DNA of 49,485 bases from Methyloversatilis sp. XJ19-49 (GTDB taxonomy: Bacteria > Pseudomonadota > Gammaproteobacteria > Burkholderiales > Rhodocyclaceae), in assembly GCF_024580145.1 (NCBI RefSeq), contig NZ_JANINI010000003.1, forward strand, positions 308,062-357,546, written 5' to 3'. Made by a program: the position numbers and the translations under genes. The notes beneath the pieces were generated by a model that ran no database searches, was not told the DNA's origin, and saw only the letters and a program-made list of their open reading frames with translations. Below are positions 9,155 to 30,591 of this stretch, piece after piece (within the stretch, counting starts at the first letter, position 1; the number at the start of each line of letters is the position of its first letter).

Positions 9155-9207
9155 TGATAGTCCGATCGGACTATCAATGTCCATATTTCATGTCACGGCA
9201 TGGACAT
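9155..9207. promoter_or_regulatory. Palindromic operator-like sites before the ExbB gene
   Basis: A 22-bp perfect palindrome (9155-9176, core TAGTCCGATCGGACTA) is followed directly by an 8-bp inverted repeat, atgtccat (9177-9184) with atggacat (9200-9207). They lie 45-95 bp upstream of the first gene of the ExbB-TonB operon, where a repressor or activator would act. Related TAGTCCG-WW-CGG sequences recur before the PEP-CTERM gene. Confidence 0.55.
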
Positions 9208-9250
9208 GTTCCGCCCCGACAATCGGCGCTGAAACTTATCCCCGCCTGCC

Positions 9251-10930
9251 ATGAAAACCCTGATTGCTCTCGGCGCCTTCGCGGCGCTTATCCCCTCTTT
9301 TGCCAACGCCTGGTGGGACGAAGCGTGGACCGCGCGCCGAATTGTCACGCTGGATACCAGCGCTGCGGGCGTACCGATCACGGCACCGCAGAATTCGATT
9401 CCGGTGGCAATCCGCCTGCACAGCGGGAATTTCGACTTTCTTGCCGCAAAGGACGACGGCTCGGACATCCGTTTTGTCACGGCAGACGACAAGACGGTGC
9501 TGAAGCACCACATCGAACGCTATGACGCGCTGAACGAACTGGCTGTGGTGTGGGTGCAGGTCCCACTGATCGCCGCCGGCGACGCGCCGGCCACGTTGTA
9601 TGCCTACTTCGGCAATGCAGCCGTCGGCGGCGCGCAGGACAGCAAGGCGACGTATGACGCCTCGACGGTCGGCGTGTGGCATTTTTCGGAAACCGCACCG
9701 CTGGCCGATTCTTCGGCCAGCGCGCTGGTGGCGCAGGGTGCCGTGCAGATGCAGAAGGCTGCGCTGCTTGGCGACGCCGCCATTTTCGGTGGAACGCCCA
9801 TCACGGTCGCGGCCGCCGCGCCGCTGGCGACGACCGCCGGCGGCGCCTGGACGATGTCGGCCTGGATCAAGCCGGCTGCGTTGCCGCAGCAGGCGACGCT
9901 GTACGGCCAGGGCGCACTGACCGTGAAGATCGAAGACACTGCGCTGGCACTGAACATCGGCGCCACCCGTCTGGCCGGCGGCACGCTGCAGCCGGGCGTG
10001 TGGCAGCACGTCGCGGCAACGGTGGGCGGCGGCAAGGCCACCCTCTATGTAAATGGCCAGCCAGCCGGCAGTGCCGACGTTGCGCTGACAGCGGAGCAGG
10101 CCGAAGTCGTCATCGGCGACGGCTACACCGGTGAGCTGGACGAACTGCAACTTGCGAACACGGTGCGCGGCCCGGACTGGATCAAGCTGGCCGCACTGGG
10201 GCAGGGTGCCGACGCGACCTTCGTCGCGGTGCGTGAGGAGGTGGCCGAATCCGAAGGCGGTCACAGCCATTTCGCCGTGCTGGTGGACAATCTGACGGTG
10301 GATGCCTGGGTCGTCATCATCATCCTCGGCGTCATGTTTCTGATCAGCGCCTGGGTCATGGTGGACAAGGCGATGCAGGTGACGCGCATCGACAAGGCGA
10401 ACCGCGGCTTCATCAATCGCTTCCGTACGGCAGCCAATGACTTCCTGCTGCTCGACAAGGGTGAAACATATGGCGACTCGTCGCTGTTCCGCCTGTATGG
10501 CGCCGGCCTGCGTGAAATACGCAAGCGCTTTGATAGCCAGGGCGAAGCGGCCGGGCTGACCGGTGCGTCGATGGACGCGATCAAGGCCGCCATCGATGCC
10601 GATCTGGTGCGCGAATCGCACAAGCTCAACGCGCGCATGGTGTTGCTGACCATCGCGATTTCCGGCGGCCCCTTCCTCGGCCTGCTCGGTACCGTGGTCG
10701 GCGTGATGATCGTGTTCGCCGCCATCGCGGCGGCCGGCGACGTGAATGTCACGGCCATCGCGCCCGGCATTGCGGCGGCACTGCTCGCCACGGTTGCCGG
10801 TCTGGCGGTCGCGATTCCGGCGCTGTTCGGCTACAACTACCTCGCGTCGCGCATCAAGAACATCAGCGCCGACATGCAGATCTTCGTCGACGAATTCGTC
10901 ACCCGCGTCGCCGAAGCGCACGGCCGCTGA
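9251..10930 (+). CDS. ExbB/TolQ proton channel fused to a DUF2341/LamG-like ectodomain
   Basis: A 559-residue inner-membrane protein. A Sec signal (1-19) is followed by WWDEAW and a DUF2341-like domain (about 25-125), then a concanavalin/LamG-like region (about 130-310, with AWTMSAWIKP and GVWQHVAAT typical of LamG folds). The C-terminal third is a normal MotA/TolQ/ExbB channel: helix 1 at about 350-371, then helices 2 and 3 at 464-497 and 503-532, with GGPFLGLLGTVVGVM as the family signature. It should conduct protons with ExbD to energise TonB. The large ectodomain faces the periplasm and may bind a carbohydrate or another protein; that is inference. First gene of the exbB-exbD-exbD-tonB run. 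The ribosome-binding site is poor. Confidence 0.88.
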   Translation: MKTLIALGAFAALIPSFANAWWDEAWTARRIVTLDTSAAGVPITAPQNSIPVAIRLHSGNFDFLAAKDDGSDIRFVTADDKTVLKHHIERYDALNELAVVWVQVPLIAAGDAPATLYAYFGNAAVGGAQDSKATYDASTVGVWHFSETAPLADSSASALVAQGAVQMQKAALLGDAAIFGGTPITVAAAAPLATTAGGAWTMSAWIKPAALPQQATLYGQGALTVKIEDTALALNIGATRLAGGTLQPGVWQHVAATVGGGKATLYVNGQPAGSADVALTAEQAEVVIGDGYTGELDELQLANTVRGPDWIKLAALGQGADATFVAVREEVAESEGGHSHFAVLVDNLTVDAWVVIIILGVMFLISAWVMVDKAMQVTRIDKANRGFINRFRTAANDFLLLDKGETYGDSSLFRLYGAGLREIRKRFDSQGEAAGLTGASMDAIKAAIDADLVRESHKLNARMVLLTIAISGGPFLGLLGTVVGVMIVFAAIAAAGDVNVTAIAPGIAAALLATVAGLAVAIPALFGYNYLASRIKNISADMQIFVDEFVTRVAEAHGR

Positions 10931-10936
10931 GAGGCG

Positions 10937-11017
10937 AAAATGCGACCCCCACGCTCACTTCGTTCGCTGCCCCCCACGGGGGCTGCTCAGCGCCTTCGGG
11001 CGGCCGGGCGGCGCTGA
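10937..11017 (+). repeat. Intergenic repeat-like hairpin between exbB and exbD
   Basis: An 88-bp gap holds sequence typical of betaproteobacterial dispersed repeats (cttcgttcgctgcccccca, then ttcgggcggccgggcgg). It contains an 8-bp stem, tcagcgcc (10987-10994) with ggcgctga (11010-11017), ending one base before the exbD start codon. No Shine-Dalgarno sequence is visible before that ATG. That it is a dispersed repeat is from memory of similar genomes, since only one copy is in the window. Confidence 0.5.
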
Positions 11018-11018
11018 C

Positions 11019-11429
11019 ATGTCCGCCGACGTCAAGGACGACAACCAGCCGTACGACGAAATCAACGTCACGCCCATGCTCGACCTGGCGTACGTGCTGC
11101 TGGTGGTATTCATCATCATGACCACGGCGTCGGTGCAGGGCATCAAAGTCGAAGCGCCGGTGACCGAAACGATCACCAGCCTCGCCAAACCGCAAACCCG
11201 TGCCATCACGATCACGGCGGCCGGCGACGTTTTCCTCGATGCCTACCCGGTCGATCTGGCGATGCTCGAAACCCGCCTCGCCCAGCACAAGAGCGCCAAC
11301 CCGGCGCTGCCCGTGGTGCTCAAGGGCGACGCGGCCGCGCACTTCGAAAAGGTGTCGGCCGTGCTGGAAATCTGCAAGCGGCTGGACATCACCGAAGTCG
11401 GGCTGGTGACCAAGAAAGCGGCAGGCTAG
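11019..11429 (+). CDS. exbD: Biopolymer transport protein ExbD (first copy)
   Basis: A 136-residue ExbD/TolR protein with a short cytoplasmic N-terminus, one membrane helix (about residues 22-42) and a periplasmic domain. The helix has INVTPMLDLAYVLLVVF, whose aspartate corresponds to the proton-carrying Asp25 of E. coli ExbD. The periplasmic part (VFLDAYPVDLAMLETRL onward) is of normal length. The start is the first ATG before the conserved NVTP motif; frames reaching further upstream run through the repeat. Pairs with the upstream ExbB. Confidence 0.9.
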   Translation: MSADVKDDNQPYDEINVTPMLDLAYVLLVVFIIMTTASVQGIKVEAPVTETITSLAKPQTRAITITAAGDVFLDAYPVDLAMLETRLAQHKSANPALPVVLKGDAAAHFEKVSAVLEICKRLDITEVGLVTKKAAG

Positions 11430-11448
11430 GCATGGAGCGGAACGCGTA

Positions 11449-11853
11449 ATGCAGGTCAATACCGAAGCCAAGCCGTATGACTCGATCAACGTCACGCCGA
11501 TGCTCGACCTGGCGTACGTGCTGCTGGTCGTGTTCATCCTGATGACGACTGCCGGCGTGCAGGGGCTGACGATGACGCTGCCCAAGCCGTCGAACAAGCC
11601 GAGCACCGAGCAGCACGAAATCAAGATCGTGCAGGTGATGGAAAGCGGTGCGCTGATGGTCAATGGCGTCGGTGTCACGCTGGGCCAGCTCGAAGGCCAG
11701 CTCAATGCCGTGCGGGCGCGTGATCCGAAGTTCAGCGTGATGATCCGCGGTGAAGCGCGTGCGCCTTACAGCGGCGTGATCGAGGTGATCGATCTGGTCA
11801 ATCGCATGGGCATCGAGAACGTCGGCCTGATCACGTCCAGGATCGGTACCTGA
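11449..11853 (+). CDS. exbD: Biopolymer transport protein ExbD (second copy)
   Basis: A second 134-residue ExbD directly after the first. It shares SINVTPMLDLAYVLLVVFILMTT, including the membrane aspartate, but its periplasmic half differs, so this is an old duplication rather than a recent one. Two ExbD paralogues beside one ExbB are known in several proteobacterial TonB loci and may form a mixed dimer inside the ExbB pentamer. The stop shares one base with the tonB start. Confidence 0.9.
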   Translation: MQVNTEAKPYDSINVTPMLDLAYVLLVVFILMTTAGVQGLTMTLPKPSNKPSTEQHEIKIVQVMESGALMVNGVGVTLGQLEGQLNAVRARDPKFSVMIRGEARAPYSGVIEVIDLVNRMGIENVGLITSRIGT

Positions 11854-12557
11854 TGGCGGCGCTGGCTGAAGATTCCCTCGAGGGTACGAGCACCGGCCGT
11901 CGTGTGCGCAACATCCTGCTGGCGCTGGTCGGCATGGGGGTGGTGGGTTACGGCGGCTACTGGCTGAAGTCGCAGTTTTCGACGCCGTCGGCACCGACCC
12001 GTCAGGTGACGAAGATTTCCATCATTCCGGATACGCCGCCGCCCCCACCGCCGCCGCCGCGCGAAGAGAAGCGGCCGGAGCCGAAGGAGCAGAAGGACGT
12101 CAAGGTCGAGCAGCCCAAGCCGGTCGAGGCACCGCCGCAGCAGGCCGAGCAGCTGAAGATGGAAGGTGCGGCCGGAGACGGCCCGAGCGCGTTTGCGTCG
12201 GGCGACGTCACCAATGAATACAAGGGCGGTGACGTCGGCAGCACGATAGGCGGCGCGCCGGCCAAGCCCAGCCGTATGCAGTACGCCTTCTACACCAATG
12301 CGCTGCAGCGCCACATCCAGGACGAACTCGCGCGCAACCGCAACGTGAAGCAGATCGATTACCGCGTCGTCGTGAAGGTGTGGCTCGGCCGTGACGGCAG
12401 CATCCAGCGCGCCGTGCTCGACGACAGCACCGGTGACGACAAGGCCGACAGCGCGCTGTCGGCGGCGCTGGCCGACATGCGCGCCTTCCGCGACGCACCG
12501 CCCGCCGACATGCCGCAGCCGATCCGCCTGCGCATCACCAACCGACTGACCGGCTGA
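11853..12557 (+). CDS. tonB: TonB-family energy transducer
   Basis: A 234-residue protein with the TonB layout: short cytoplasmic tail, one membrane helix (about 19-37, NILLALVGMGVVGYGGYWL), a proline-rich spacer (about 53-92 with eight consecutive prolines and alternating Glu/Lys-Pro), and a C-terminal TonB/TolA-like domain (about 140-234). It should carry energy from ExbB/ExbD to an outer-membrane partner. Unlike E. coli TonB, the membrane helix has no histidine. The 1-bp overlap with exbD shows tight coupling. The likely partner is unclear, since the gene that follows encodes a porin and not a TonB-dependent receptor. Confidence 0.85.
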   Translation: MAALAEDSLEGTSTGRRVRNILLALVGMGVVGYGGYWLKSQFSTPSAPTRQVTKISIIPDTPPPPPPPPREEKRPEPKEQKDVKVEQPKPVEAPPQQAEQLKMEGAAGDGPSAFASGDVTNEYKGGDVGSTIGGAPAKPSRMQYAFYTNALQRHIQDELARNRNVKQIDYRVVVKVWLGRDGSIQRAVLDDSTGDDKADSALSAALADMRAFRDAPPADMPQPIRLRITNRLTG

Positions 12558-12607
12558 GCGCGCGAGCGCCTCGCTTACCCATTCCAGACAGATCCCGGAC
12601 CGATGTC

Positions 12608-14260
12608 ATGAAGAAATCCCTCCTCCCTGTTGCACTGGCCGCGCTGTTCGCGCTGCCGGCGCACGCCAGTGAAGCGGAAACGCTGGATACGCTGCGCCAG
12701 ACCACGCTCAACCTGATCGATGCACTGGTCGACACAGGCGTGCTGACGCGCGAAAAAGCCGATGCGCTGGTCAAGGCTGCCGAAGCAAAAACTGCCAAGG
12801 CGGTGGCCAAGGCAAAAAAAGACACTACGGTGCGCGTGCAGTACGTGCCCGAATCGGTGAAGGCTGAGATACGCGACCAGCTGAAGCAGGAAGTGCTTGC
12901 GCAGGCGCGCAGCGAAGGCTGGGCCGCTCCGAACTCGATTCCGGAGTGGACCGAGCGCATCAAGATCGAGGGTGATCTGCGGGTGCGTTACCAGAACGAT
13001 CGCTTCCCGGCCGGCAATACGCCGATCGGCGGCTTCGCGCCGGGTGCCATCGGCAATCCGGGTGCGACCAATGATGACTTTCCGCTCGGCACGCGCTTTC
13101 CGTCAGGCGTCGATCTCGATGGCAACGGCTTTCCGAACGGTAACGTCGATGACAACGTAAATCGGCTGCGCCTGCGAGCCCGTCTGGGTGTGCTGGCGAA
13201 GATCAGCGACGGGGTCAGCGCAGGCTTGCGCTTTACCACCGGCAATGTGACCGACCGCGTGTCGACAAACCAGACGTTGGGCAGCGGCTTCAACAAGTAC
13301 AGCTTCCTCGTGGATCGCGCCTACATCAAGATCGATCCGGTCGAGTGGGCGTCGTTCACCGGTGGGCGCGTGCCCAACCCGTGGTTTGCCACCGATCTGG
13401 TGTGGGACGAAGACCTGAACTTCGACGGCATTGCCGTCAATCTGCGCAACGTCACGCCGACCGCCACTCTGCGGCCGTTCGCCACCGCCGGCTGGTTCCC
13501 GCTGCGCGCCGACAATCCGCCGAACGCAGAAAAGCAGTGGCTGGCCGGTGCCCAGATCGGCACCGAATTCGACTGGAATTCGTCGATCAAGCTGCGCTTC
13601 GGCCTGGCGAAGTATCACTACAGCCGCATCGAGGCGCGCACCGACAACAACTACGATGCGCTCAATGGGCCGCTGCAGGGCTACGGGCGCTACGCGCACT
13701 CGTCCGCACTGCGCGCCAGGGGCAATACGCTGGTGCAGACGAACAGCCCGATCGACAACACCGAAGCACCGATCTACGGTCTGGCGTCGAAATTCGAGCC
13801 GTGGGTGCTCACCGCCACCGCCGATCTGGCGCACTTCGATCCGGTGCATGTGCTGCTGTCCGCCGAATACGTGAAGAACACAGGCTTTGACCGAGGCGAC
13901 ATCCAGCGGCGCACCGGTTTGGCGTTGACCGACGGCAAGGACACGGCGTACCACCTGCGTGCCGCAGTCGGCATGCCTTCGGTCACGCTGAGCGACGATT
14001 GGCAGGTGTTCCTGTCATATAAATACATCGGATCCGATGCCGTGCTCGACGGCTTCACCGATTCGGATCTCGGCCTCGGTGGCACCAATATCAAGGGTTT
14101 CGTGCTTGGCGGCAGCTACGGCCTGTACCGCAACACGGCGCTCGGGCTGCGCTGGTACTCGGCGAAGAACATCCAGACCATGACCTATGATCCCACTGCC
14201 ATCACCGCCCAGCGCTACGAAGTGGACACGCTGATGATGGACATGAGCGTGAAGTTCTGA
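12608..14260 (+). CDS. Putative porin with N-terminal helical region
   Basis: A 550-residue outer-membrane protein of the putative porin type often found beside DUF2341-ExbB genes. A Sec signal (1-20, ending AHAS) precedes a helical region (about 22-115: LIDALVDTGVLTREKADALVKAAEAK) that could span the periplasm or form a trimer stalk, then a beta-barrel (about 120-550) opening with IKIEGDLRVRYQNDRF and ending in an aromatic residue (MSVKF). It is only 50 bp after tonB and 2 bp before the coiled-coil gene, so it belongs to this operon. The transported substrate is unknown. Confidence 0.85.
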   Translation: MKKSLLPVALAALFALPAHASEAETLDTLRQTTLNLIDALVDTGVLTREKADALVKAAEAKTAKAVAKAKKDTTVRVQYVPESVKAEIRDQLKQEVLAQARSEGWAAPNSIPEWTERIKIEGDLRVRYQNDRFPAGNTPIGGFAPGAIGNPGATNDDFPLGTRFPSGVDLDGNGFPNGNVDDNVNRLRLRARLGVLAKISDGVSAGLRFTTGNVTDRVSTNQTLGSGFNKYSFLVDRAYIKIDPVEWASFTGGRVPNPWFATDLVWDEDLNFDGIAVNLRNVTPTATLRPFATAGWFPLRADNPPNAEKQWLAGAQIGTEFDWNSSIKLRFGLAKYHYSRIEARTDNNYDALNGPLQGYGRYAHSSALRARGNTLVQTNSPIDNTEAPIYGLASKFEPWVLTATADLAHFDPVHVLLSAEYVKNTGFDRGDIQRRTGLALTDGKDTAYHLRAAVGMPSVTLSDDWQVFLSYKYIGSDAVLDGFTDSDLGLGGTNIKGFVLGGSYGLYRNTALGLRWYSAKNIQTMTYDPTAITAQRYEVDTLMMDMSVKF

Positions 14261-14262
14261 CC

Positions 14263-14913
14263 ATGAAGACCCTGAGCTTCCTTCTGGTGGCGCTGCTTGG
14301 CGCCACGTCGGTCCATGCGCAGCAGGCTTCGCGCGAGCAGGAACAGTTGCGCCGCCTGCGCGCCCAGGCGCAGCAGTTGCAGCAGGCGCTGTCGGCCGAA
14401 CAGCAGGCGCGCCAGCAGGCGGCTGCCGAAGCCGACCGGCTGAAGCAGGCGGCCGAAGTCGAATTGCCCAAGCTTGAAGAAGAAGCCGCCAGCGCAAAGC
14501 GCCGCGCCAGCGGTGCGCAGCGCAAGGCTGATCAGCTTGCGAGCGAACTGGAGGAAGCGCGTGTCGCCGCCGCAGCACAGGCGCAGCAGCTCGAAGCGAC
14601 CCGCAAGCAGCTGGCCGACCGCGAGCGCGATCTGGCACAGACCCGCGACACCTTGCAGAAGACCGAGCGCGAACTCGAAGGCGCACGTATCCAGGGTGAA
14701 TCGCTGACCGGCAAGCTGGCCCAGTGCACCAAGGACAACGTCGCCCTGTACCAGACCGGCATCGACATGCTCGATCGCTGGCGCGACCGCTCGCTCGGCG
14801 AGCGCGTCGGCCAGGCCGAGCCGTTCACCCAGATCGGACGCGTCAAGCTGGAAAACCTCGTCGAAGGCTATCGCGACCGCCTCGAAGACAGTCTGTCCCG
14901 CCCGGAAAAGTAA
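14263..14913 (+). CDS. Exported coiled-coil protein
   Basis: A 216-residue protein with a Sec signal (1-20, ending VHAQ) and a long heptad-rich Gln/Glu/Ala helix (about 22-155), followed by a short C-terminal region with CTKDNVALYQTGIDMLDRW. It resembles periplasmic spacer or adaptor proteins, but I do not recognise a named family. Only 2 bp separate it from the porin gene, so the two products probably work together, for instance with this protein bridging the porin and TonB or the peptidoglycan. One cysteine is in the C-terminal part. Confidence 0.75.
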   Translation: MKTLSFLLVALLGATSVHAQQASREQEQLRRLRAQAQQLQQALSAEQQARQQAAAEADRLKQAAEVELPKLEEEAASAKRRASGAQRKADQLASELEEARVAAAAQAQQLEATRKQLADRERDLAQTRDTLQKTERELEGARIQGESLTGKLAQCTKDNVALYQTGIDMLDRWRDRSLGERVGQAEPFTQIGRVKLENLVEGYRDRLEDSLSRPEK

Positions 14914-14970
14914 AGGCGGGCTGCGGGCTGCGCCTCGCCTGTGGGAAGCGTCGGCCTGTAGGAGCGGTCC

Positions 14971-15006
14971 TGTGGGTGCGGTGGCCTGGGGATCGCCGCT
15001 CCCACA
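14971..15006. repeat. Degenerate REP-like hairpin, copy 4
   Basis: A decayed version of the REP-like element: tgtgggtgcgg at the left and cgccgctcccaca at the right, with a 10-nt centre. A separate truncated head (gtgggaagcg) is at 14941. Confidence 0.6.
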
Positions 15007-15283
15007 GGGCTGCCGTTCCACGGTCAGCACAGCGGACCCGTGCTCCCCACGCCCGTTCCGCCTCTGCAGCCGATGCCCGGCCTGCCGTGACGCGACGTTA
15101 CACAAATTTTCTGATGCACCGCCGCATTTTGCCGGCCTGCTTTACACCTTGCGGACTACCCGCAACTGCCCTTGCATCCATGCGAGTTGTAACAAACCGA
15201 CGCATTCAGGCGATTTTCAGACTTTACGGACCATTCTCGAAATCCTTTCCCATAAAAGATTTCAGGGGATCGGATCATTTTTC

Positions 15284-15404
15284 ATGAGCCGAACGGACTA
15301 CGAATTCGAAGCCGGGCTGCAACGGTTTCGTCATCTGCGATCGCTAACGTCCTGCCCAGGTCAACGGACGGAATTCTTTACAGCCAATAGTCCGAACGGC
15401 TCAT
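15284..15404. promoter_or_regulatory. Inverted pair of TAGTCCG-type sites
   Basis: Left arm 15284-15300 (atgagccgaacggacta) and right arm 15388-15404 (tagtccgaacggctcat) are inverted copies with two mismatches, 87 nt apart. Each matches half of the 9155-9176 palindrome (TAGTCCG-WW-CGG). They could be binding sites for one regulator, or fold as a long-range stem in a leader RNA. Confidence 0.5.
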
Positions 15405-15528
15405 TCATTGGCACTACCCACTTCGGGCGGGTGTAACGCGAGCCCGTCAATCTCGATTCGCTTCCTCGTGGAGCAGGGCGATCCGGTGCGAGCCGGATAC
15501 CACCCACGAACTTTCCTAGGAGATTTAT

Positions 15529-16389
15529 ATGTTCAAAATTAAACTGCTGGCAGGCGTTGCCGCTGTTGCGATGTCGGGTGCCGCGAGCGCCGGCATCATC
15601 GGCTCGAACGGCGGGAATACCGAATTGGTATTTACCGCATATGTCGGTGATGTTGGCTACACCTACGACCTCGCCGACGCTGGCTTCAACAGCATCTTCG
15701 GCAGCAACGTGTTGATGGACAGCCTGATTGGCAGCGGCAACCAGAACGCCAACAACACAGCTCAGCTGACCGCAACGAAGTCATACCTCACCAACAACTT
15801 CTCGACCGGCGTTGTATTCGACGCGGCGCTGACTGGCTTCGACAGCTTCCTGGCGTTGTCGGGCGGCACCACGGGCGTGTTGTGGAATGTTTGGTCCGGT
15901 GAAAACGGCGGTGTTGCACGCGTCGTTCAGACCGTCGCCTCCGAGCCTGCAGCGCGCGTTCGTTCCAACACGATCCTCGGCGCTGTTTCGCAGTTTAGCT
16001 TCTACACGGATGCAAACAGCCAAGGCGGCACGCATAACAATCTGGACGTGACTGTTGATGGCTACCGCGTGACGACTGTCCTCGACGGTAACGCGTTTGC
16101 CGGCAAGGTTGCTCCCGAGCTCAGCAAGACCTACGGCAGCTTTGGCAGCATCGGCGACACCATGGACATGTATGTGGTCCGCAGTGCGTCATCACTGTCA
16201 AACACCAGCCTGGGCGGCTTTGCCCAACTCCTGGGTGGAACCGACCAAGCGGTGACTGCCAAGGTTTACGTCGGCGACCAAGGCGAATATCGCCTGCAGA
16301 TCAGCGCTGTACCTGAGCCGGAAACCTACGCAATGCTGCTGGCTGGTCTGGGCCTGATCGGCTTTGCCGCCCGTCGTCGCAGCGTCTGA
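15529..16389 (+). CDS. PEP-CTERM sorting domain protein
   Basis: A 286-residue exported protein. The Sec signal (1-21, ending ASAG) is followed by a region rich in Gly, Ser, Asn and Thr without a recognised domain, then a classic PEP-CTERM tail (about 261-286: VPEPETYAMLLAGLGLIGFA and a terminal ARRR). The tail is the cleavage and sorting signal for an exosortase, so the mature protein should end up at the cell surface or in extracellular polymer. No exosortase gene is in the window. A strong aggag site precedes the ATG. It lies 57 bp upstream of the PstS-like gene with similar ribosome-binding-site context (ggagat), suggesting co-transcription. Confidence 0.9.
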   Translation: MFKIKLLAGVAAVAMSGAASAGIIGSNGGNTELVFTAYVGDVGYTYDLADAGFNSIFGSNVLMDSLIGSGNQNANNTAQLTATKSYLTNNFSTGVVFDAALTGFDSFLALSGGTTGVLWNVWSGENGGVARVVQTVASEPAARVRSNTILGAVSQFSFYTDANSQGGTHNNLDVTVDGYRVTTVLDGNAFAGKVAPELSKTYGSFGSIGDTMDMYVVRSASSLSNTSLGGFAQLLGGTDQAVTAKVYVGDQGEYRLQISAVPEPETYAMLLAGLGLIGFAARRRSV

Positions 16390-16446
16390 TTCCCTTCTTG
16401 CCTTAAAGGTTGCGCGACGATGCGCGACCCGTTCTGGAGATAGACC

Positions 16447-17991: not shown

Positions 17992-18003
17992 GTGTGATGT
18001 ACG

Positions 18004-18076
18004 CCGGGCAGCGTTTCACGAAGCTGCCCGGTTCGTTTTGACGAACGGCCCGCCCCCGGCGGGCCGTTCCCTTGTT
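18004..18076 (+). terminator. Two tandem terminator-like hairpins
   Basis: Hairpin 1: a 9-bp stem ccgggcagc (18004-18012) with gctgcccgg (18023-18031), then ttcgtttt. Hairpin 2: an 11-bp stem (18044-18054 with 18058-18068) closed by ccc, then cccttgttt. They separate the PstS-like gene from tpsB, which implies that tpsB is at least partly transcribed from its own promoter. Confidence 0.75.
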
Positions 18077-18113
18077 TGACTCTGTACTTGTGCCTACATC
18101 CTTCGCGGCTTTC

Positions 18114-19733: not shown

Positions 19734-19827
19734 GGGGATTCCGAGTGGAGTTCCAATAGGCGCGCCCTGCGCCCGATCGATGTCCGCAGCGGCGCTGCCC
19801 GACATCGGCTCAGTGAATTTTTGCATC

Positions 19828-22900: not shown

Positions 22901-25900
22901 TCACGGCGGTGCCGCGTGCGCTGCGCGAAGACGGCGTCCAGCTTTCCTTTGCTGCGACCTCGGAATCGGCCGGCACGCTGACGGTGGACGACAACGCGAC
23001 GATCAACGTCGATGCCGGAGGCAGCATCGAGTTGTCGGCCAACCGCAGTCTGGAACTGGCCGGCAAGTTGAACGCGCCGGGCGGGCGCATTGCGCTGCGC
23101 ATGGACGAAGTGCAGCAGGACGACATCTATTTCGGCAGCTCGATTTTTGTGGCCTCGACCGCGCGGCTGAACACCAGCGGCGTATTCCTGCAGACGCCTG
23201 GCCTGAGTTATGTCGATGGCACGCTGTTCGATGGCGGCTCGATCGACATCGCCGCGCGCCGGGGCTTCCTGGTCATCCAGGACGGTGCGCAGCTGCGTGC
23301 CGACGGCAGCAGTGCGGTTCTGGCGCAACGCACCGGCGCACTGGGCGCCCTGTCGGCCGTGCGCATCGACAGTTCGGGCGGCCGGATTGCGCTGAATGCC
23401 CGCGAGGGGCTGTATGCCGATCCGCTGCTGTCGGCACGCGCTGGCGGGTCGAACGCACTCGGTGGTCAGCTTTCGGTGATGCTGGATCAAGGCTCGAACA
23501 ACTGGGGCGACCTGCTGTCCCTGCCGACCGCACTGACCGGCCCGCGCACGCTGGATATCCTGCAGGGCGGCAACAGCGGCTCGGCTGCCTTGGTGGCCGG
23601 TGCTGCACCCGATGCGGCGACCTACGGCGGACGCGGCGCGTTCGCACTCGACGCGCTTGATGGCAGCGGTATCGCCGATCTGACGTTGGCGGTGCTCGGC
23701 AACGGTGGCAATTTCGGCACGCTGCGCTTCAGCGAGGACGTCAACGCGTCGGTCGCCGGTCGCATGGTGCTGAACGCCGCCAACATCCGGGGCACGAACG
23801 GTGCCGACGTGCGGCTCGGTGCTGCCGTGCTCGACTGGACCAACGTCGGTCGCATCCAGCAGAACCACGCACAGCCGACCGCCGTGGCCGCCGGTGACGG
23901 CAGTCTCGTGCTGGCTGCGGATCTCGTCCAGGTTTCCGGCAACCTCGCAGCGAGCGGTTTCGCCGACGTGACGCTGGATGCCCGCGGCGACCTGCGGGCG
24001 AGTGCATCGCCTGGCTACGTCGCCGATGGCGCCAGTCTGGTGACCAGCGGCGACCTCACCTTGCGCGCCGCGCAGGTGTATCCGACGTCGGCATCGCGCT
24101 ACGCCTTCGAAATCCACAACAATCCGGCCGGCACGCTGCGCATCGAATCGTCGGGCCGCGCCGCCGGGCCGGTCTATTCCGCGCTCGGCTCGCTGACCTT
24201 CGCTGCACCGGACATCGTGCAGGCCGGGCGCGTGGTCGCCCCGTTCGGCGACATCGTGCTGCGTTCGGAAACGATCACCCGCACCGGTGCCGGCACGACG
24301 CGCTCGGAAGCGGCTGGCGGTTCGATCGAACTGGCCGCCGGCAGCGTCACGTCGGTATCGGCCGACGGGTTGCTGCTGCCGTACGGTCAGACCGCGCTCA
24401 GCGGACGCGACTGGCTCTACCTGGTCGGCACCGATGCGCGGATCGAACTCGATGGCACGCCGCAGAAGCGCATCACGCTGAATGCCGACAATGTGGTGTT
24501 GCAGGGGGCGCAGGGTGGCCGGGCGGCGGCTCGGGTCGACCTGTCGGGCGGCGGCGATCTGCAGGCATGGGAATGGATCGCCGGCAGCGGCGGCTCACGC
24601 GACATTCTCGCCGCACCGCAGGACAGCTACGCCATCGTGCCGACGCTGGGCAGCGGCTACGCGGCCTACGACCTGTCGATGTGGGCGGAAGAAGGCAACG
24701 GCCTGCGCATCGGCGAGGCGGTGCAGGTACTCGCGTCGGCCAACGGCCTGGCTGCGGGTACCTACACCTTGCTGCCGGCGCGCTACGCACTGCTGCCGGG
24801 CGCCTTCCTGATCAGTCTGTCGCCCGGCGACAGTTCGCTGGCCGCGGGCCAGGCGCAGGCGAATGTCGATGGCAGTGCGCGCGTGAGCGTGCGTTCGGCG
24901 CAGGCGCTGGGCGGCGTGAGCCGCTCGACCGGAAAGGCCTTCGTGGCCGAACTGCTGACCTCCGAGCAGGTGCGTGACCGCGCCGAATACCTCATTTCGA
25001 AGACTGCCGATGTGTTCGACGACGGACGCAGCACGGCTGACGCCGGCCGCCTGTCGCTGCAGGTCGGCCGCGCGCTGACGCTCGATGGCGTGCTGGATAC
25101 CAGTCGCGGCGCGGCGGCCCGCGGTGCGCAGGTGGACATCACCGCACAGGCACTGGCGCTGTTGGGGCAGGGTACTGCCGCGCGTACCGGCGAAGTCGGC
25201 GTGTCGGTGGCGAGCCTGAATGCGCTCAATGCCGAAAGCCTGCTGTTGGGCGGCACGCGCAGTGAGGTGGATGAAGAGAGTGGCGAAACCCTGGTCGACG
25301 TGCGCGCAGCGGACGACGCCGGTCGCCTGATCCGCGGCGCGTCGACGGTGCGTCTGGACAATGCGGCCGGGCCTGCGCTGAGCGCACCTGATGTGGTGCT
25401 GGTGGCGCGCGACAGCGTGGTCATCGAAGCCGGCAGCCAGATTGCGGCGGTCGGCACGGCGGAGCCGGAGGCGCTGCGCATTTCGGGCAGCGGCGCCGAC
25501 GCCGACGGCGCCGCGCTGCGCGTCAGCGCGGCCGACGCGGCACCGATCTCGCGTGATGCGCCGTCGGGCCTGCGCGGCGAACTGACGCTCGGCGCCGGTT
25601 CGCGCATCGCTGGCCGCGGCGTCGTGCTCGACAGCACGCTGGAAACGCGAAATCTCGGTGCGACCATCGCGCTGCCGCAGAGCGGCGGCGCACTGGCACT
25701 GACGGCGTCGACCATCAATGTCGGCGACGTGCCGTTCGATACGCCGGGCCTGCGCTTTGACAACAGCCAGCTGGCGGCGCTGGGCGATCCGTCGCGCCTC
25801 ACATTGCGCGCCTACGGTGGTCTCAACCTGTATGGCGAGGTGACGCTGGGCAGCGCCTCGCTCGACCTGCTGCGCATCGACGCCGCCGGCATCGGCGGTG

Positions 25901-28900
25901 TCGACAATGCGGGTCTGACCCAGAACATCGTCGCCCGCGAGGTGCAGTTTGCAAACACTTCGCCCACCGCTGCTGCATTGGCACCCGCCGTGGGCACCGG
26001 TGCCTTGTCGGTGACGGCCGACCGCATCGTGCTCGACGGCACGCCGGCGGCTGCCGCCGGGCAGGCCGGTTTCGCGATCAGCGGATTCGATGCCGTGACG
26101 CTGGCGGCAGCCAACCAGGTGCGCGTTTCGGGCGACGGCGACTATCGCGTCATGGCCGATACGGTGCGCATCGCCACGCCGCAGATCGCGGCCGACACCG
26201 GGGCAAATACCCGTATCGCGGTCGATGGCGCGTTGTCCATTTCCGGCGGCGACGCGCCGGCCGGCGTGGTGCAGGCCGGCATCGGTGCGGCGCTGGCGCT
26301 CGATGCCCAGGCCATCGATCTGGCGTCGCGCATTGCGCTGCCGTCCGGTCGTGTCAGCCTCAGCGCGACGCAGGATGTGCGCGTGGCGGCGGGTGGCATG
26401 ATCGATGTGTCCGGCACGGCGAAGAACTATCTTGGCAAGACCGTCACCACACCGGGCGGCGACGTGGTGCTGACGTCGCGCAATGGCGATGTCACGCTGG
26501 AGCAAGGCGCCTTGATCGACGTGTCGGCGGCATCGACGGCTGCCACCGGTGGAAATGCCGGTTCGGTCACGCTGTCGGCTGCGCAGGGCGAACTGTCGGT
26601 CGCCGACGGCGCGCTGCGGGCGCAGTCGAGCGGTGGCAGCGCCGGTGGCGCCCTGTCGGTCGATCTGCGTTCGGCGGCCAGCCTGGATAGCCTGGCGGCG
26701 CAGGGCAGCGAATTCACGCGCAGCTGGTCCGCCCGTGTGCGCACCGGCGACACACGGCTCGACACCGACCTCAAGTCCGGCGACATCGCGATCGCGGCCG
26801 ACGCGGGTTCCTTGACCATCGGCAGCACTCTGGACGCTTCGGGTGCCGAACAGGGCGGCCGCATCGAGCTGTCAGCGCGGCGCGCGCTCGATCACCTCGA
26901 GGGCATGACGACCGGCGCCGGTGATCTGGTGCTCGAGTCGGGTGCGCGGCTGGATGCGCGTGCCACCGCATTCGTCGCCGAAGCGAGCGGGACGCGCGGC
27001 GAAGGTGGCAGCGTCATCCTGGAAGCCAGCCCGCGCAGCGCGGGCGGAGAAAGCGGCCCGGCTCAGGGCGGCCGCATCCGCATCGCCGACGGCGCCACCA
27101 TCGATGTCGGCACCACACCGGGAGTGGTCAATGGCGTTGCGCTGGCCAGTGCGGCGCAGCAGGGCGATGTGTGGCTGCGCGCCGAGCGCACCGGCAATAC
27201 GGCGGTCGCCATCGACGGCGATCTGTCGAATGCCATCGACGGTGCGCGCCATGTGTTCGTCGAAGGCACGCGCATCTATGGCGGCAGCACGCTCAGCATG
27301 GCCGCCGCGCACGCCGATGCAGCGGCGATGACCAGTTCAGTCAATGTGGCGGCGACGCGTGCGGCGCTCGGTTTGCCAGCACAGGATGCCGACGGCGGCA
27401 CGCGCTTCCACGTGCGGCCGCACATCGAGTTCCGCGCCGACGGCAATTTCACGATCAATGCGACCGATCTCGCTGCCAACACCTATCAGGGCGGCACCGA
27501 AGCGGGTTCGCTGACCGTGCGCGCAGCGGGCAACCTCAACGTGAATGGTGCGCTGTCGGATGGCTTCGGCCGGCTGAATGCAAGCAGCCAGACCATCGTG
27601 CTGGGCGCGCTCACGAGTGCCGGCCTGACGCAGAGCCGCTTCGATCTGGGGCAGCGCGATACGGCCTGGTCAATGCGCCTGGTGTCGGGTGCCGATCTGG
27701 ACGGTGCCGGTGCAATGTCGCTGCAGGCGCTCGACGCGCTGGAGACGGCCAATCGTGGCGACATGATTCTGGCCGCCAACGCGCAGGTGCGCACTGGCGC
27801 TGGCGACATCGACGTCGCGGTCGGTCGCGATCTGGTGCTGGGCGCGCGCGCCGCAATCTACACCGCGGGTTATCAGACGGCACGCGGCGACGGCTTCACG
27901 ACGCAGACGCTGCTGAATCTGAATGGCTCGGGCAACCGTCAGGCGGAATACCCGACCGACGGTGGCGACGTGGCGATCCGCGCCCAGCGTTCCATCGTCG
28001 CGACCGAATCGCCGGGCATTGTCGGCGAATGGTTGCTGCGCCAGGGTGCGCTCAGCCCGACCGGTGAATTCCTGTCCGGGTCGGGCCAGCGCAACACGAC
28101 CTGGTACGCCCGCATCGATCAGTTCAGCCAGGGCGTGGCGACCTTCGGCGGCGGCGACATCCGGGTCACGGCGGGCAATGACATCCGCAATCTCGGTGTG
28201 TTCACGGTCACCAATGGCCGCCTTTCCGGTGCGGCGGGCACCACGCCTGATCCGGCCAACCTGCAGGTTCTGGGCGGGGGCGACGTGACGGTGCGAGCGG
28301 GCGGCGACATCGGCAGTGCCATCCTGATGGTGGATCGTGGTGCCCTCGACGCACAGGCGGCAGGTGATTTCGGCAGCGCGCGCAACAATGGCGCCGGGTC
28401 GGTACTGCTGCTGGGCGAAGCATCGGCGCGGTTGGGTGCGGCGGGCTCGATCGATCTGGAAACGATTGCGTCATCGACCGCGGTGCGTCAGGCATCGAAC
28501 ACCACCACGTCGAATCGCAGCAGCTACTTTTTCCGCTATGGCGAAGGCAGCCGGGTCGATCTGCTGAGTTTCGGCGGCAGCGTCAGTCTCGACAACAACG
28601 CGACGCCGTGGGGTACGCTGGCGCTGTGGGAAGGTCTGAACCCGCTGCTGCCGAATTCGCTCAATGCGGTGGCCATGGGCGGTGACCTGAACCTGCGCAA
28701 CGGCATGGTGCTGCTGCCGGCGACCTACAACGACCTGCTGCTTGCGGCGTCGGGCAACCTCAACCTGGCGACCGCCAGTGGCGGTGTCGCCGGCATCAAG
28801 ATTGCCGACAGCGCGCCTGCTCTGGTGCCGTCAGCGCTGCGTCCGGCGGCCAACCCCAACAACGTGTTCTGGGTCGAACTGGCCAATCCGAACGTCGTGT

Positions 28901-30591
28901 CCGGCATCCGCGCGCATGACGCCGACCTGAACGCCAACCGCGTGGTCGAGCCGGTCAGGCTGATCGCCGAAACGGGAAATGTCGCGGTACCGTCGGTCGG
29001 TGCCAATCTGCCGCTGGTGATCAATTCGCCGCAACCGGTGCAGGTCGACGCGGGTGGCGACATCAGCAACCTGACCATCCGCTCGCAGCACTTCAGCGAC
29101 AGCGACTTGACCCGCGTTCGCGCCGGCGGTGACATCACCTTCGACACCGTTTTCGAGAGCGACGGCGTGACGCCGTCAGGCAGCATCGCCGAAGGCATAC
29201 AGACCGGCGGCCGCGGCAAGCTCGAAGTGGTCGCAGGCGGCCGCATCGATCTGGCCAACAGTTTCGGCGTGGTCACCCGCGGCAATTTCGACAATCCGTG
29301 GCTGGACGAGGTCGGCGCGTCGATTCTCGTGCAGGCCGGCAGCGCCGGTTTCGACGGCCGCGAGGTGTGGTTGTCGCTGCTGCCAGTTCGAGGTGCAGCG
29401 GGAGAAGACAGTTACGACCAGTTGCTGCTGTCGCTCAGCAGTGCGAGGTCGATCGAAGCCCTGCTGTCCGGACCGGACAGCGGCGCGCTGATCAAGGTGC
29501 GCAGTGAAGGGCGCACGCTGATCGCACAGAGGCTCGCAGCGATCGACGCAGCCATTGTCAGCTACATGCGTGGCAACGGCGCGGCGCCGGACGCGCCGGA
29601 AGCGCAACTGCTGCAGGCTTTCGACGCACTGCCTGCCGCCGTGCAGCGGGATTTCTTCACTGCGCAGCAGCCGCTCGTGTCTGCGCTGCTGAATGCCGGA
29701 CTGAACTACGCCGGCAAGCTGGGAGACGCGATCGGTGCCGGCTCGACCGGTTATGCCCCGGGTGTAGACCTGGTGGAAACGGCCTTTCCGCAGACGGCAG
29801 GGGGCAATACGGGTGGCGACATCAATCTGTTCTTCAGTCAGGTGAAGTCGGAACAGGGCGGAAACGTCGATCTGTTTGCACCGGGCGGCAGCATCAACGT
29901 CGGTGTGGCAGGGGCCGGGGCCAGTGCAGCCAGCGCGTCGCGCCAGGGCGTATTCGCGATCGGCGAGGGTGAAATCAACGCCATCGCGGGGCAGGACTTC
30001 CAGCTCGGCCCATCCCGCGTATTCACGCTGGGCGGCGGCGACATCCAGCTCTGGTCGACGGCCGGCAATATCGACGCCGGCCGCGGTTCGCGCACGGCAT
30101 CGGCCACGCCGCCGCCGCAGGTGCGCATCCGCGGCGACCTCGTGGTGCTGGACATCAGCGACTCGGTGTCCGGTTCAGGCATCGGCACGCTGAAGCGCTC
30201 CGACGAGGTGCGCGACGCCGACATCCGGCTGTTCGCACCGTCGGGCGCCATCATCGCGCTCGATGCCGCGATCCGCTCGTCGGGCAATCTGACCATCGGC
30301 GCGCAGCAGGTGATCGGCAATTCGATCAGCGTGGGGGGCAGCCTGAGCGGTTCGGCGACGGTCGCTGCAGCAGCGCCGGCTGCGGCACCTTCGGCGCCGC
30401 CTCCGAGCGAAGCCAACAAGGCGGTCGATCAGGGCCAGAGGGCCACTGCTGCCGGACAGAAGGACGCGCGCGATCCGAATTCCATCCTGACCGTCGAACT
30501 GGTCGGTCTGGGCGAGGAGACGACTGCCGCGGGCTGCGAAGAGGACGACGAGGACGAGCGGTGCAAGGAACGCGCGACGCGCGCCAACTGA
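19924..30591 (+). CDS. Giant TpsA exoprotein, filamentous-hemagglutinin type (3,555 aa)
   Basis: Secreted or surface-anchored beta-helical exoprotein. The N-terminus has an ESPR-like extended signal (MNTNRYRLIFNELTATWVP) and a hydrophobic core (residues about 41-58). The TPS secretion domain follows (about 60-330), with MVIQQSGNAVMLNWNSFNIG and FNQAGILFGPGANIDVGG, equivalent to the NPNGI motif region. The rest is thousands of residues of Gly/Ala/Asp-rich repeats predicted to form a right-handed beta-helix. Near the C-terminus NIDAGRGSRTA resembles the DUF3739 type of FhaB-like proteins; a Pro/Ala-rich segment and an acidic tail with C3538 and C3547 end the protein. Only one other mature-part cysteine was seen (C729). 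There is no CDI-type toxin tail or immunity gene. Role probably adhesion or biofilm, not proven. Confidence 0.92.
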   Translation: MNTNRYRLIFNELTATWVPVAECVAARGKRSAGRLQRRVLATACALAFTTPLMAAGALPVAAPNFVDGRLPGTATMTQTANRMVIQQSGNAVMLNWNSFNIGRGNAVHFDQASAAMRAINVVAPGGPRSEIDGTLTARGQVFIFNQAGILFGPGANIDVGGLVGSSLKLNDELLQRALNSLGSTGAALTPFADGDYAGRATGDITVARGARILAAKNGRVLLAAPNVRVGANVDTTIDTPLTPAQRAALPDARIEAEEGQVVLAAGERIYIADPLDSRLRGFLVEVDNGGTVTTDSASELLSERGNITLVGLNIRHAGAARATTSVTLNGTVFLKARDSVAARQVDAMFPDAEPLATGVNVPIGQRTGSIELAAGAVIDISPDAASRTQTARDDALFRRSEINLYGHTIVLADAGANGVGVTLRAPSGLLRVTAEATALSSTQPVPQRDGASRVYIGSGSVIDLAGLDAFADAGREIVRVELRGDEVKDAPLLRDEAFGRALFGKQVWVDLREGTELFDIAGYLGGVERTLDEKLTTGGEFVAYSQGDVLTHSASSIDLSGGTVTYRAGEVGYTLVKSADGRSQSVADARADRIYTGTQDRTRTVAERVEGRDAGELTVTAFGMALDGAVKAQRTVGATQRELVTRALGPGKSDVLGSPQAGRIDLNLRLVNGLAAQDTRFVNSTGTRALSATGALPTELWLRSDWFSSGIGSFELTGAGNVVLPESVCLTLGPTALYNAATDSMPAFWSDGSRFAVTGTTLTIDGDITAAGGDITLRTGGLADDAPRATRTISVGAKSQLSTAGQWQRDTRSSARGYVAADGGSITLDADSHLNLARGSQIDASAGAWQSLDGTRELGDAGAISLGAGFEVTGGDPGTGVPVGSFFGNLNLGAQLSAFATSLTGRASAGGSLVLRSAAIALDGVNAGLLGDTLYLSPTLFSGSGFSDFSLTGGNRMDIGGASALTLTPVVQARAIDGIRSVSAGSLAGLGRVTAVPRALREDGVQLSFAATSESAGTLTVDDNATINVDAGGSIELSANRSLELAGKLNAPGGRIALRMDEVQQDDIYFGSSIFVASTARLNTSGVFLQTPGLSYVDGTLFDGGSIDIAARRGFLVIQDGAQLRADGSSAVLAQRTGALGALSAVRIDSSGGRIALNAREGLYADPLLSARAGGSNALGGQLSVMLDQGSNNWGDLLSLPTALTGPRTLDILQGGNSGSAALVAGAAPDAATYGGRGAFALDALDGSGIADLTLAVLGNGGNFGTLRFSEDVNASVAGRMVLNAANIRGTNGADVRLGAAVLDWTNVGRIQQNHAQPTAVAAGDGSLVLAADLVQVSGNLAASGFADVTLDARGDLRASASPGYVADGASLVTSGDLTLRAAQVYPTSASRYAFEIHNNPAGTLRIESSGRAAGPVYSALGSLTFAAPDIVQAGRVVAPFGDIVLRSETITRTGAGTTRSEAAGGSIELAAGSVTSVSADGLLLPYGQTALSGRDWLYLVGTDARIELDGTPQKRITLNADNVVLQGAQGGRAAARVDLSGGGDLQAWEWIAGSGGSRDILAAPQDSYAIVPTLGSGYAAYDLSMWAEEGNGLRIGEAVQVLASANGLAAGTYTLLPARYALLPGAFLISLSPGDSSLAAGQAQANVDGSARVSVRSAQALGGVSRSTGKAFVAELLTSEQVRDRAEYLISKTADVFDDGRSTADAGRLSLQVGRALTLDGVLDTSRGAAARGAQVDITAQALALLGQGTAARTGEVGVSVASLNALNAESLLLGGTRSEVDEESGETLVDVRAADDAGRLIRGASTVRLDNAAGPALSAPDVVLVARDSVVIEAGSQIAAVGTAEPEALRISGSGADADGAALRVSAADAAPISRDAPSGLRGELTLGAGSRIAGRGVVLDSTLETRNLGATIALPQSGGALALTASTINVGDVPFDTPGLRFDNSQLAALGDPSRLTLRAYGGLNLYGEVTLGSASLDLLRIDAAGIGGVDNAGLTQNIVAREVQFANTSPTAAALAPAVGTGALSVTADRIVLDGTPAAAAGQAGFAISGFDAVTLAAANQVRVSGDGDYRVMADTVRIATPQIAADTGANTRIAVDGALSISGGDAPAGVVQAGIGAALALDAQAIDLASRIALPSGRVSLSATQDVRVAAGGMIDVSGTAKNYLGKTVTTPGGDVVLTSRNGDVTLEQGALIDVSAASTAATGGNAGSVTLSAAQGELSVADGALRAQSSGGSAGGALSVDLRSAASLDSLAAQGSEFTRSWSARVRTGDTRLDTDLKSGDIAIAADAGSLTIGSTLDASGAEQGGRIELSARRALDHLEGMTTGAGDLVLESGARLDARATAFVAEASGTRGEGGSVILEASPRSAGGESGPAQGGRIRIADGATIDVGTTPGVVNGVALASAAQQGDVWLRAERTGNTAVAIDGDLSNAIDGARHVFVEGTRIYGGSTLSMAAAHADAAAMTSSVNVAATRAALGLPAQDADGGTRFHVRPHIEFRADGNFTINATDLAANTYQGGTEAGSLTVRAAGNLNVNGALSDGFGRLNASSQTIVLGALTSAGLTQSRFDLGQRDTAWSMRLVSGADLDGAGAMSLQALDALETANRGDMILAANAQVRTGAGDIDVAVGRDLVLGARAAIYTAGYQTARGDGFTTQTLLNLNGSGNRQAEYPTDGGDVAIRAQRSIVATESPGIVGEWLLRQGALSPTGEFLSGSGQRNTTWYARIDQFSQGVATFGGGDIRVTAGNDIRNLGVFTVTNGRLSGAAGTTPDPANLQVLGGGDVTVRAGGDIGSAILMVDRGALDAQAAGDFGSARNNGAGSVLLLGEASARLGAAGSIDLETIASSTAVRQASNTTTSNRSSYFFRYGEGSRVDLLSFGGSVSLDNNATPWGTLALWEGLNPLLPNSLNAVAMGGDLNLRNGMVLLPATYNDLLLAASGNLNLATASGGVAGIKIADSAPALVPSALRPAANPNNVFWVELANPNVVSGIRAHDADLNANRVVEPVRLIAETGNVAVPSVGANLPLVINSPQPVQVDAGGDISNLTIRSQHFSDSDLTRVRAGGDITFDTVFESDGVTPSGSIAEGIQTGGRGKLEVVAGGRIDLANSFGVVTRGNFDNPWLDEVGASILVQAGSAGFDGREVWLSLLPVRGAAGEDSYDQLLLSLSSARSIEALLSGPDSGALIKVRSEGRTLIAQRLAAIDAAIVSYMRGNGAAPDAPEAQLLQAFDALPAAVQRDFFTAQQPLVSALLNAGLNYAGKLGDAIGAGSTGYAPGVDLVETAFPQTAGGNTGGDINLFFSQVKSEQGGNVDLFAPGGSINVGVAGAGASAASASRQGVFAIGEGEINAIAGQDFQLGPSRVFTLGGGDIQLWSTAGNIDAGRGSRTASATPPPQVRIRGDLVVLDISDSVSGSGIGTLKRSDEVRDADIRLFAPSGAIIALDAAIRSSGNLTIGAQQVIGNSISVGGSLSGSATVAAAAPAAAPSAPPPSEANKAVDQGQRATAAGQKDARDPNSILTVELVGLGEETTAAGCEEDDEDERCKERATRAN

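What the first reader, a model, noticed from the sequence alone, without database searches (positions are those of the whole stretch)
9155..30591. Possible TonB-energised surface system: ExbB-ectodomain fusion, ExbD pair, TonB, porin, coiled coil, PEP-CTERM, PstS-like protein and giant TPS pair
Seen: ten co-directional genes, almost all exported or membrane, with no metabolic gene among them. The first six form a tight operon; the last four follow in the same direction and share a dyad motif upstream. Known: ExbB/ExbD/TonB power outer-membrane processes, and TpsB exports TpsA normally without energy input. Inference: the motor could drive release, assembly or signalling of the TpsA fibre, or the TPS fibre and PstS-like protein could capture a substrate that the porin and TonB import. 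The presence of a TonB but no TonB-dependent receptor in this block makes the porin or TpsB the only local candidates for a TonB partner.
Basis: partly seen in the sequence, partly recalled or inferred. Interest (0 to 1): 0.75.

Follow-up and report, generated by a model that had tools for sequence, protein, structure and literature searches.

The report
Motor-linked two-partner secretion gene cluster
A bacterial gene cluster joins a proton-driven membrane motor to a secretion system for a giant surface protein that is thought to need no power; the pairing recurs in many other bacteria, and the giant protein ends in a conserved tail that the motor might grip.

Summary
The ten genes are real and the two halves belong together. 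The window is from a Methyloversatilis-like genome. Of the 80 best relatives of the ExbB(DUF2341-LamG) fusion, 73 have a two-partner secretion (TPS) gene in the locus and 70 have TpsA or TpsB within 3 kb upstream on the same strand. In 281 class-level genomes the fusion occurs in 19, all among the 20 with a DUF3739-type TpsA; 0 of 74 genomes with only other TPS domains have it. Gene order in relatives matches the published P. aeruginosa pdtB-exbB2-exbD2-tonB4-PA0696-PA0697 unit, co-transcribed but with an uncharacterised motor. None of the 80 loci shows a TonB-dependent receptor. New here: DUF3739 TpsA proteins end in a flexible linker plus a conserved strand (SILTVEVLGFGD; 25 of 25 held-out tails, 0 of 17 control tails). 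Its divergence tracks TonB and the porin more than TpsB. Best reading: TonB grips the exported protein's own tail. That step is inferred; a TonB-box profile did not recognise the tails. Known cluster, unrecognised class: TPS with its own motor.

The parts
9157..9173 (.). perfect dyad ATAGTCCGATCGGACTA upstream of the ExbB operon
   Evidence: the only 0-mismatch site in the genome; present with 0-2 mismatches (of 14) in 11 of 11 genus loci
9251..10930 (+). ExbB fusion: signal peptide, DUF2341, LamG, TM, MotA_ExbB
11019..11429 (+). ExbD 1
11449..11853 (+). ExbD 2
11853..12557 (+). TonB (TonB_2 C-terminal domain, Pro-rich middle)
12608..14260 (+). Porin_5 outer-membrane protein with N-terminal helical extension
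14263..14913 (+). exported coiled-coil protein with conserved C-terminus
   Evidence: no Pfam family
15284..15300 (.). dyad variant ATGAGCCGAACGGACTA upstream of the PEP-CTERM gene
15387..15403 (.). dyad variant ATAGTCCGAACGGCTCA upstream of the PEP-CTERM gene
15529..16389 (+). PEP-CTERM protein
16447..17991 (+). PstS-like (PBP-like) exported protein
18043..18069 (+). terminator-like hairpin between PstS-like and TpsB
18114..19733 (+). TpsB: POTRA_2 and ShlB
19924..30591 (+). TpsA: ESPR, TPS domain, 3555 aa, DUF3739 near C-terminus
30034..30357 (+). DUF3739 region of TpsA (aa 3371-3478)
30481..30516 (+). conserved C-terminal strand motif SILTVELVGLGE (aa 3520-3531)

Best explanation
This is a two-partner (type Vb) secretion system with its own proton-driven Ton motor. 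TpsB carries the giant TpsA to the surface. TpsA ends in a flexible linker and a conserved strand-like peptide that should be the last part to leave the periplasm. [quoted passage not shown] ExbB/ExbD then pull on it with proton-motive force and so control the last step: keeping the fibre anchored or under tension at the cell surface, or freeing it from TpsB. Porin_5 and the coiled-coil protein are standing outer-membrane and periplasmic parts of the same machine; the ExbB ectodomain probably docks or senses a periplasmic partner. Shown here: gene content, linkage, specificity for DUF3739 TpsA, absence of a nearby TonB-dependent receptor, and the tail motif. Inferred: periplasmic location of the tail, TonB binding, direction of force and outcome. 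Recalled, not tested: that TpsA leaves N-terminus first and that TonB binds boxes by strand addition.
For: Linkage: 73 of 80 loci have a TPS gene, 70 of 80 within 3 kb upstream on the same strand, in three arrangements. Specificity: fusion in 19 of 281 genomes, all 19 among the 20 with DUF3739, 0 of the 74 with only other TPS domains; 2 and the same 2 of 143 in a second class, one being the search centre. Same order in P. aeruginosa, one transcript for pdtB and the Ton genes. No receptor in 80 of 80 loci. Tail motif: 25 of 25 held-out tails, 0 of 17 controls; 9 of 9 TpsA tails in a genome with a single motor, motif 93% identical against 54% for DUF3739 and 45% for the linker. AF2 leaves the motif unstructured beyond the beta-helix. 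Motif divergence tracks TonB (0.64) and porin (0.57) above TpsB (0.41) and TpsA's own C-terminal domain (0.34), n=30. Precedent for Ton-dependent secretion: PopC/Oar (PMC6434023, abstract and outline).
Against: A TonB-box profile from 12 of the genome's own receptors does not score the tails above shuffles (4 of 51 over the 95% level, 2.6 expected). The co-variation does not single out the TonB C-terminal domain: in 66 systems a Porin_5 segment ties (0.50 against 0.48), and in the 30 with TpsB the best TonB segment is N-terminal (0.63; C-terminal segments 0.58 and 0.57). TPS export has been reconstituted without energy input (PMC5422565, passage). In P. aeruginosa, insertion mutants in tpsA, tpsB, the tonB homologue and PA0696 were as virulent as wild type in zebrafish (PMC2729926, passage). 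TonB would pull inward, against export. 6 of 33 fusion genomes searched have no DUF3739 hit, and this genome's own fusion paralogue is not beside TPS genes.
Confidence: 0.45

Rival explanations
1. Import machine: the TpsA fibre and the PstS-like protein capture a phosphorus compound, and the motor energises Porin_5 or TpsB to take it up, as HxuA/HxuB work with the TonB-dependent receptor HxuC.
For: Porin_5 is in 75 of 80 loci and its divergence tracks the tail motif as well as TonB's does. PstS-like family shares a region with phosphate-binding and DING proteins; G279 has two DING-type proteins just before TpsA. Dyad sites also precede two PhoX genes. HxuABC precedent (PMC5422565, passage).
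Against: PstS-like is absent from most of the 80 loci by the profile used (2 of 80). Porin_5 has no plug domain match. No transport substrate is known.
Confidence: 0.25
2. The tail docks on TpsB, Porin_5 or the coiled coil as a passive anchor, and the motor serves another step such as outer-membrane tethering.
For: Porin_5 co-varies with the motif about as well as TonB does; TpsB lies next to the fusion in 30 of 80 loci. One motor, with several TpsA, fits any shared partner.
Against: TpsB co-varies less (0.41). A free strand on a flexible linker near a receptor-less TonB is most simply a TonB ligand (inference).
Confidence: 0.15
3. Only co-regulation: motor and TPS sit in one phosphate- or exopolysaccharide-related regulon and do not act on each other.
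For: Dyad shared with PEP-CTERM and PhoX genes; P. aeruginosa genes are under PhoB and VreI.
Against: 19 of 19 co-occurrence in 281 genomes and three gene arrangements; a C-terminal motif present in motor-linked TpsA and in 0 of 17 other TpsA tails.
Confidence: 0.1

Closest known systems
P. aeruginosa Pdt/PUMA3 cluster (pdtA-phdA-pdtB-exbB2-exbD2-tonB4-PA0696-PA0697-PA0698-PA0699; PMC7035377, PMC4971064, PMC2729926, passages)
   Same: TPS pair with ExbB, ExbD, TonB, putative porin and PA0697 in the same order as Burkholderia L060, which also has the PhdYeFM/transposase, YbjN and PpiC genes.
   Different: In the window TpsB-TpsA lie downstream of the motor, with PEP-CTERM and PstS-like genes between and two ExbD. 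No P. aeruginosa sequence was compared here; whether its ExbB2 is a DUF2341 fusion and PdtA a DUF3739 protein was not tested.
Classical two-partner secretion (FhaC/FhaB type)
   Same: ESPR and TPS domain in TpsA, POTRA_2 and ShlB in TpsB.
   Different: Described as using no energy source or gradient (PMC5422565); here a Ton motor is linked and TpsA has DUF3739 and a conserved tail.
Ton system with TonB-dependent receptor
   Same: ExbB channel domain, ExbD, TonB.
   Different: No receptor in the block or in the 80 related loci; ExbB carries an exported DUF2341-LamG ectodomain, a fusion type mentioned as of unknown function in PMC12505986 (passages).
HxuC/HxuB/HxuA haem uptake
   Same: TPS plus a Ton-dependent step (PMC5422565, passage).
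   Different: HxuC is a TonB-dependent receptor; none is found here.
Oar/PopC Ton-dependent secretion in Myxococcus (PMC6434023, abstract and outline)
   Same: Ton motor used for protein secretion.
   Different: Acts through a TonB-dependent transporter, not TpsB.

Membership tests
Two-partner (type Vb) secretion | TPS domain in TpsA | tested here: met
   PF05860 E 7e-21; ESPR also found
Two-partner (type Vb) secretion | TpsB with POTRA and ShlB/Omp85 barrel | tested here: met
Two-partner (type Vb) secretion | TpsA actually exported through TpsB | not testable with these tools
   needs an experiment
Ton (ExbB-ExbD-TonB) motor | MotA/TolQ/ExbB channel, ExbD and TonB C-terminal domains | tested here: met
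   NCBIfam equivalog cut-offs for ExbB, TolQ, ExbD and TolR are not reached
Ton (ExbB-ExbD-TonB) motor | partner TonB-dependent receptor nearby | tested here: not met
   0 of 80 loci; nearest in the window is 14 kb away on the other strand. Receptors elsewhere in this genome exist (13 Plug matches)
P. aeruginosa Pdt/PUMA3-type cluster | TPS genes with ExbB-ExbD-TonB-porin-PA0697-like coil | tested here: met
   by gene content and order; sequences of P. aeruginosa not compared
P. aeruginosa Pdt/PUMA3-type cluster | PhoB/VreI control and VreAIR genes | not tested
   no Pho box or VreAIR search of this genome was run; another dyad was found
TonB-box proteins | TpsA tail matches TonB boxes | tested here: inconclusive
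   4 of 51 tails over the 95% shuffle level; best window in register with the motif in 13 of 51
PstS/DING-like periplasmic binding proteins | PBP-type fold and binding-loop region | tested here: inconclusive
   profile hits; AF2 model unusable, pLDDT 33.8

The most novel reading that the evidence does not exclude
TonB pulls directly on a secreted protein. A giant TpsA carries a TonB-box-like strand near its C-terminus, so the Ton motor is mechanically coupled through the outer membrane to a surface fibre, making it a powered, tensioned or retractable fibre; in genomes with many such TpsA one motor serves all of them.
Probability: 0.3. Interest if true: 0.9.

Novelty: new variant of a known kind. 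Interest (0 to 1): 0.72.

Why it matters
Type V secretion is described as using no energy source or gradient (PMC5422565). A motor that co-occurs with one whole subclass of TPS proteins, and a conserved tail on the substrate as a possible handle, make the question of powered TPS testable with a few deletions. It could give a job to the uncharacterised exbB2-exbD2-tonB4 system of P. aeruginosa, to DUF2341-ExbB fusions of unknown function, and to a TonB without a receptor.

Tried and rejected
TonB-box identity of the tail: a profile from 12 own-genome receptors (segments read; the thirteenth, L150, gave no readable box) did not pick out the tails (4 of 51 over the 95% shuffle level, 0 of 16 controls); the best window fell on the motif in register in 13 of 51. 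'TonB box' stays an inference.

Co-variation: a first set (n=41) made the TonB C-terminal domain stand out (0.58; next 0.39). Enlarging to 66 lowered it to 0.48 with a Porin_5 segment at 0.50; in the 30 systems with TpsB the top TonB segment was N-terminal. I do not claim that it singles out TonB. For Burkholderia-type tails the register was set by a hand-written pattern. Relatedness is only partly controlled.

Structure: AF2 of the PstS-like protein failed (pLDDT 33.8). The TpsA C-terminus model (pLDDT 80.2) has no Foldseek match at E 0.001 or better in the PDB. No PDB sequence match for the coiled coil.

Known PEP-CTERM cis-element (17 nt ending TTTACA, plus a sigma-54 site; PMC1569441, passages): considered for the dyad and set aside on the described sequence; its logo was not seen.

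Dyad statistics are modest at low stringency: 24 hits at up to 3 mismatches in the genome against 14 for the reversed pattern, and 4 in the window against 2.19 expected.

Rows and misses: control tail L129 is an antisense ORF, so 16 true controls of 17. In one search, 36 of 40 tails passed their own 99% shuffle level; of the four misses two were wrong frames and carry the motif, L182 has a divergent form, L190 has none; L177 and L189 passed at another position. Six of 33 searched fusion genomes have no DUF3739 hit: G346, G348, G352, G353, G366, G367 (34 loci given, L088 not held).
Full report
What is there. The window is G000:C23:308062-357546 of a 4.1-Mb genome. The nearest named record has a 96% identical fusion and is a Methyloversatilis MAG.

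Are the halves one system? On linkage, yes. In the genus the fusion is in 12 of 13 genomes and DUF3739 in 13 of 13. Eleven of the twelve keep the order fusion to TpsA start on one contig; the twelfth is split over two contigs. In the thirteenth, G010, one 20-kb stretch holds ExbD pieces, TonB and a 429-codon frame with the TpsA C-terminus side by side, and the profiles found no fusion, porin, coil, PstS-like gene or TpsB there. With profiles grown from the window proteins, 73 of 80 loci hold a TPS gene and 70 of 80 have TpsA or TpsB within 3 kb upstream on the same strand (nearest is TpsA in 40, TpsB in 30; median gap 157 bp). Porin_5 is in 75 and the coil in 70. The seven without a TPS gene are L025, L054, L057, L061, L064, L077 and L094; most of these are cut by contig ends. 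TPS genes sit upstream in most loci and downstream in Methyloversatilis, so the pairing has outlasted rearrangement.

Is it specific? In 281 class-level genomes of at least 95% completeness, DUF3739 passes its cut-off in 20 and the fusion (E 1e-70 or better) is in 19, all among those 20. The exception, G137, has its TpsA at a contig edge. A TPS domain of any sort is in 94, so 0 of the 74 with only other TPS domains have the fusion. In 18 of the 19 a fusion and DUF3739 lie on one contig within about 22 kb, 12 of them within 2.5 kb; in G303 they are on different contigs. In a second class the same 2 of 143 genomes have both, one of them the search centre. Of 33 further fusion genomes, chosen mostly for lacking a nearby TpsA C-terminus, 27 have DUF3739 and 6 do not. 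The fusion is not always TPS-linked: this genome's own paralogue (L008) sits beside V-type ATPase genes.

What is known. P. aeruginosa has pdtA, phdA, pdtB, exbB2, exbD2, tonB4, PA0696 (putative porin), PA0697, PA0698 (YbjN) and PA0699 (PpiC); the Ton genes are called still uncharacterised (PMC7035377, passages). One promoter transcribes phdA, pdtB, exbB2D2, tonB4 and PA0696-PA0701, needing PhoB and VreI (PMC4971064, passages). Llamas et al. already noted TPS, ExbBD and PA0696 homologues with PUMA3 in several other bacteria (PMC2729926, passages). Burkholderia locus L060 has a PhdYeFM/transposase gene upstream, then TpsB-ExbB-ExbD-TonB-porin-coil-YbjN-PpiC. I had no P. aeruginosa sequence, so this match rests on order and annotation. 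DUF3739 gave 0 papers. In the listings I saw for DUF2341/ExbB (15 of 1,056), TPS with Ton genes (15 of 165), tonB4/exbB2/pdtA (15 of 91) and TonB with TpsA (12 of 21) no title or abstract start proposed that the motor powers TPS; most subscription papers are not held.

The tail. DUF3739 TpsA proteins end in a low-complexity linker and then a strand-like peptide, SILTVELVGLGE at residues 3520-3531 here. A 12-residue profile trained on 26 of 51 non-redundant tails (23.2 bits) found it in 25 of 25 held-out tails above the 99% shuffle level and in 0 of 17 tails of other TpsA proteins, one of which is an antisense ORF. The tails are related, so this shows conservation, not independent events. The 17 class-sample genomes whose C-terminus I read carry it (17 of 20; G137 is cut, G269 and G281 not fetched). 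G369 (Rhodoblastus, L100) has 9 DUF3739 TpsA and one fusion; 9 of 9 tails carry the motif at 93% mean identity, against 54% for the DUF3739 region, 45% for the linker and 35% after it. AF2 with 45 sequences gives a beta-helix with a helical insert, ending near residue 401 of 480, and leaves the motif without secondary structure at pLDDT near 50. Exceptions are listed under Tried and rejected.

Who binds the tail? No receptor-like ORF is found in the 80 loci, while the same test finds the window's receptor at 45008-47452. In 30 systems with TpsB, motif divergence correlates with TonB 0.64, porin 0.57, TpsB 0.41, ExbB ectodomain 0.40, TpsA C-terminal domain 0.34, coil 0.31, ExbD 0.25 and ExbB membrane part 0.18, although the best TonB segment there is N-terminal. 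In 66 systems a porin segment (0.50) and segments in the C-terminal half of TonB (0.48, 0.46) lead. Against TonB, the genome's own TonB-box profile does not recognise the tails. I hold TonB as the likeliest partner, not a shown one.

Regulation and phosphate. The dyad precedes the ExbB operon in 11 of 11 genus loci (0-2 mismatches of 14), and variants (2-4 mismatches) precede the PEP-CTERM gene in 10 of 11. Five other genomic sites at up to 3 mismatches were looked at. Two precede PhoX phosphatase genes, and three precede genes whose products end in a PEP-CTERM-like tail, read by eye; seven weaker sites were not examined. The PstS-like family shares a region with phosphate-binding and DING proteins, and G279 has two DING-type proteins just before its TpsA. 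A phosphorus role is plausible, so the import rival stays open.

Verdict. A cluster known from P. aeruginosa but uncharacterised there, shown here to be a widespread motor-linked TPS class with a conserved substrate tail. The coupling mechanism is a hypothesis with a clear test.

Noticed in passing
L008:3848-14529 (own genome, contig 41): A second DUF2341-ExbB fusion with ExbD and TonB is followed by V-type ATPase genes (ATP-synt_ab twice, V_ATPase_I), with a VIT/VWA protein upstream on the other strand.
   Followed up: partly
window 9157-9173, 15284-15300, 15387-15403; L137:3939 and 9887; L138:1695; L139:1769; L140:1809: A dyad (ATAGTCCGWWCGGACTA) may define a small regulon of the motor operon, PEP-CTERM genes and two PhoX phosphatase genes; its regulator is unknown.
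   Followed up: partly
L115:9910-11689 (G010): A reduced copy of the cluster in a relative: ExbD pieces, TonB and a TpsA C-terminal piece side by side, the tail motif still present.
   Followed up: partly
L100 and G369: One genome with 9 DUF3739 TpsA genes and a single motor fusion.
   Followed up: yes
L083:4213-5789 and 6944-7930: Next to TpsA in Bradyrhizobium: an STN-TonB_2 protein (STN just under its cut-off), a TonB and a FecR protein, resembling VreA/VreR.
   Followed up: partly
window 12608-14260: Porin_5 has an N-terminal extension with a strand-like stretch TVRVQYVPE before helices; similar stretches were matched in 53 of 98 porin ORFs by a strict pattern.
   Followed up: partly
window 8641-8994: Small exported protein with three repeats of the type HESxYxPxxL (read by eye), no Pfam family, found upstream of the cluster in 4 of the genus loci.
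   Followed up: no
window 45008-47449: A TonB-dependent receptor on the minus strand beside a molybdopterin oxidoreductase set, 14 kb past TpsA.
   Followed up: no
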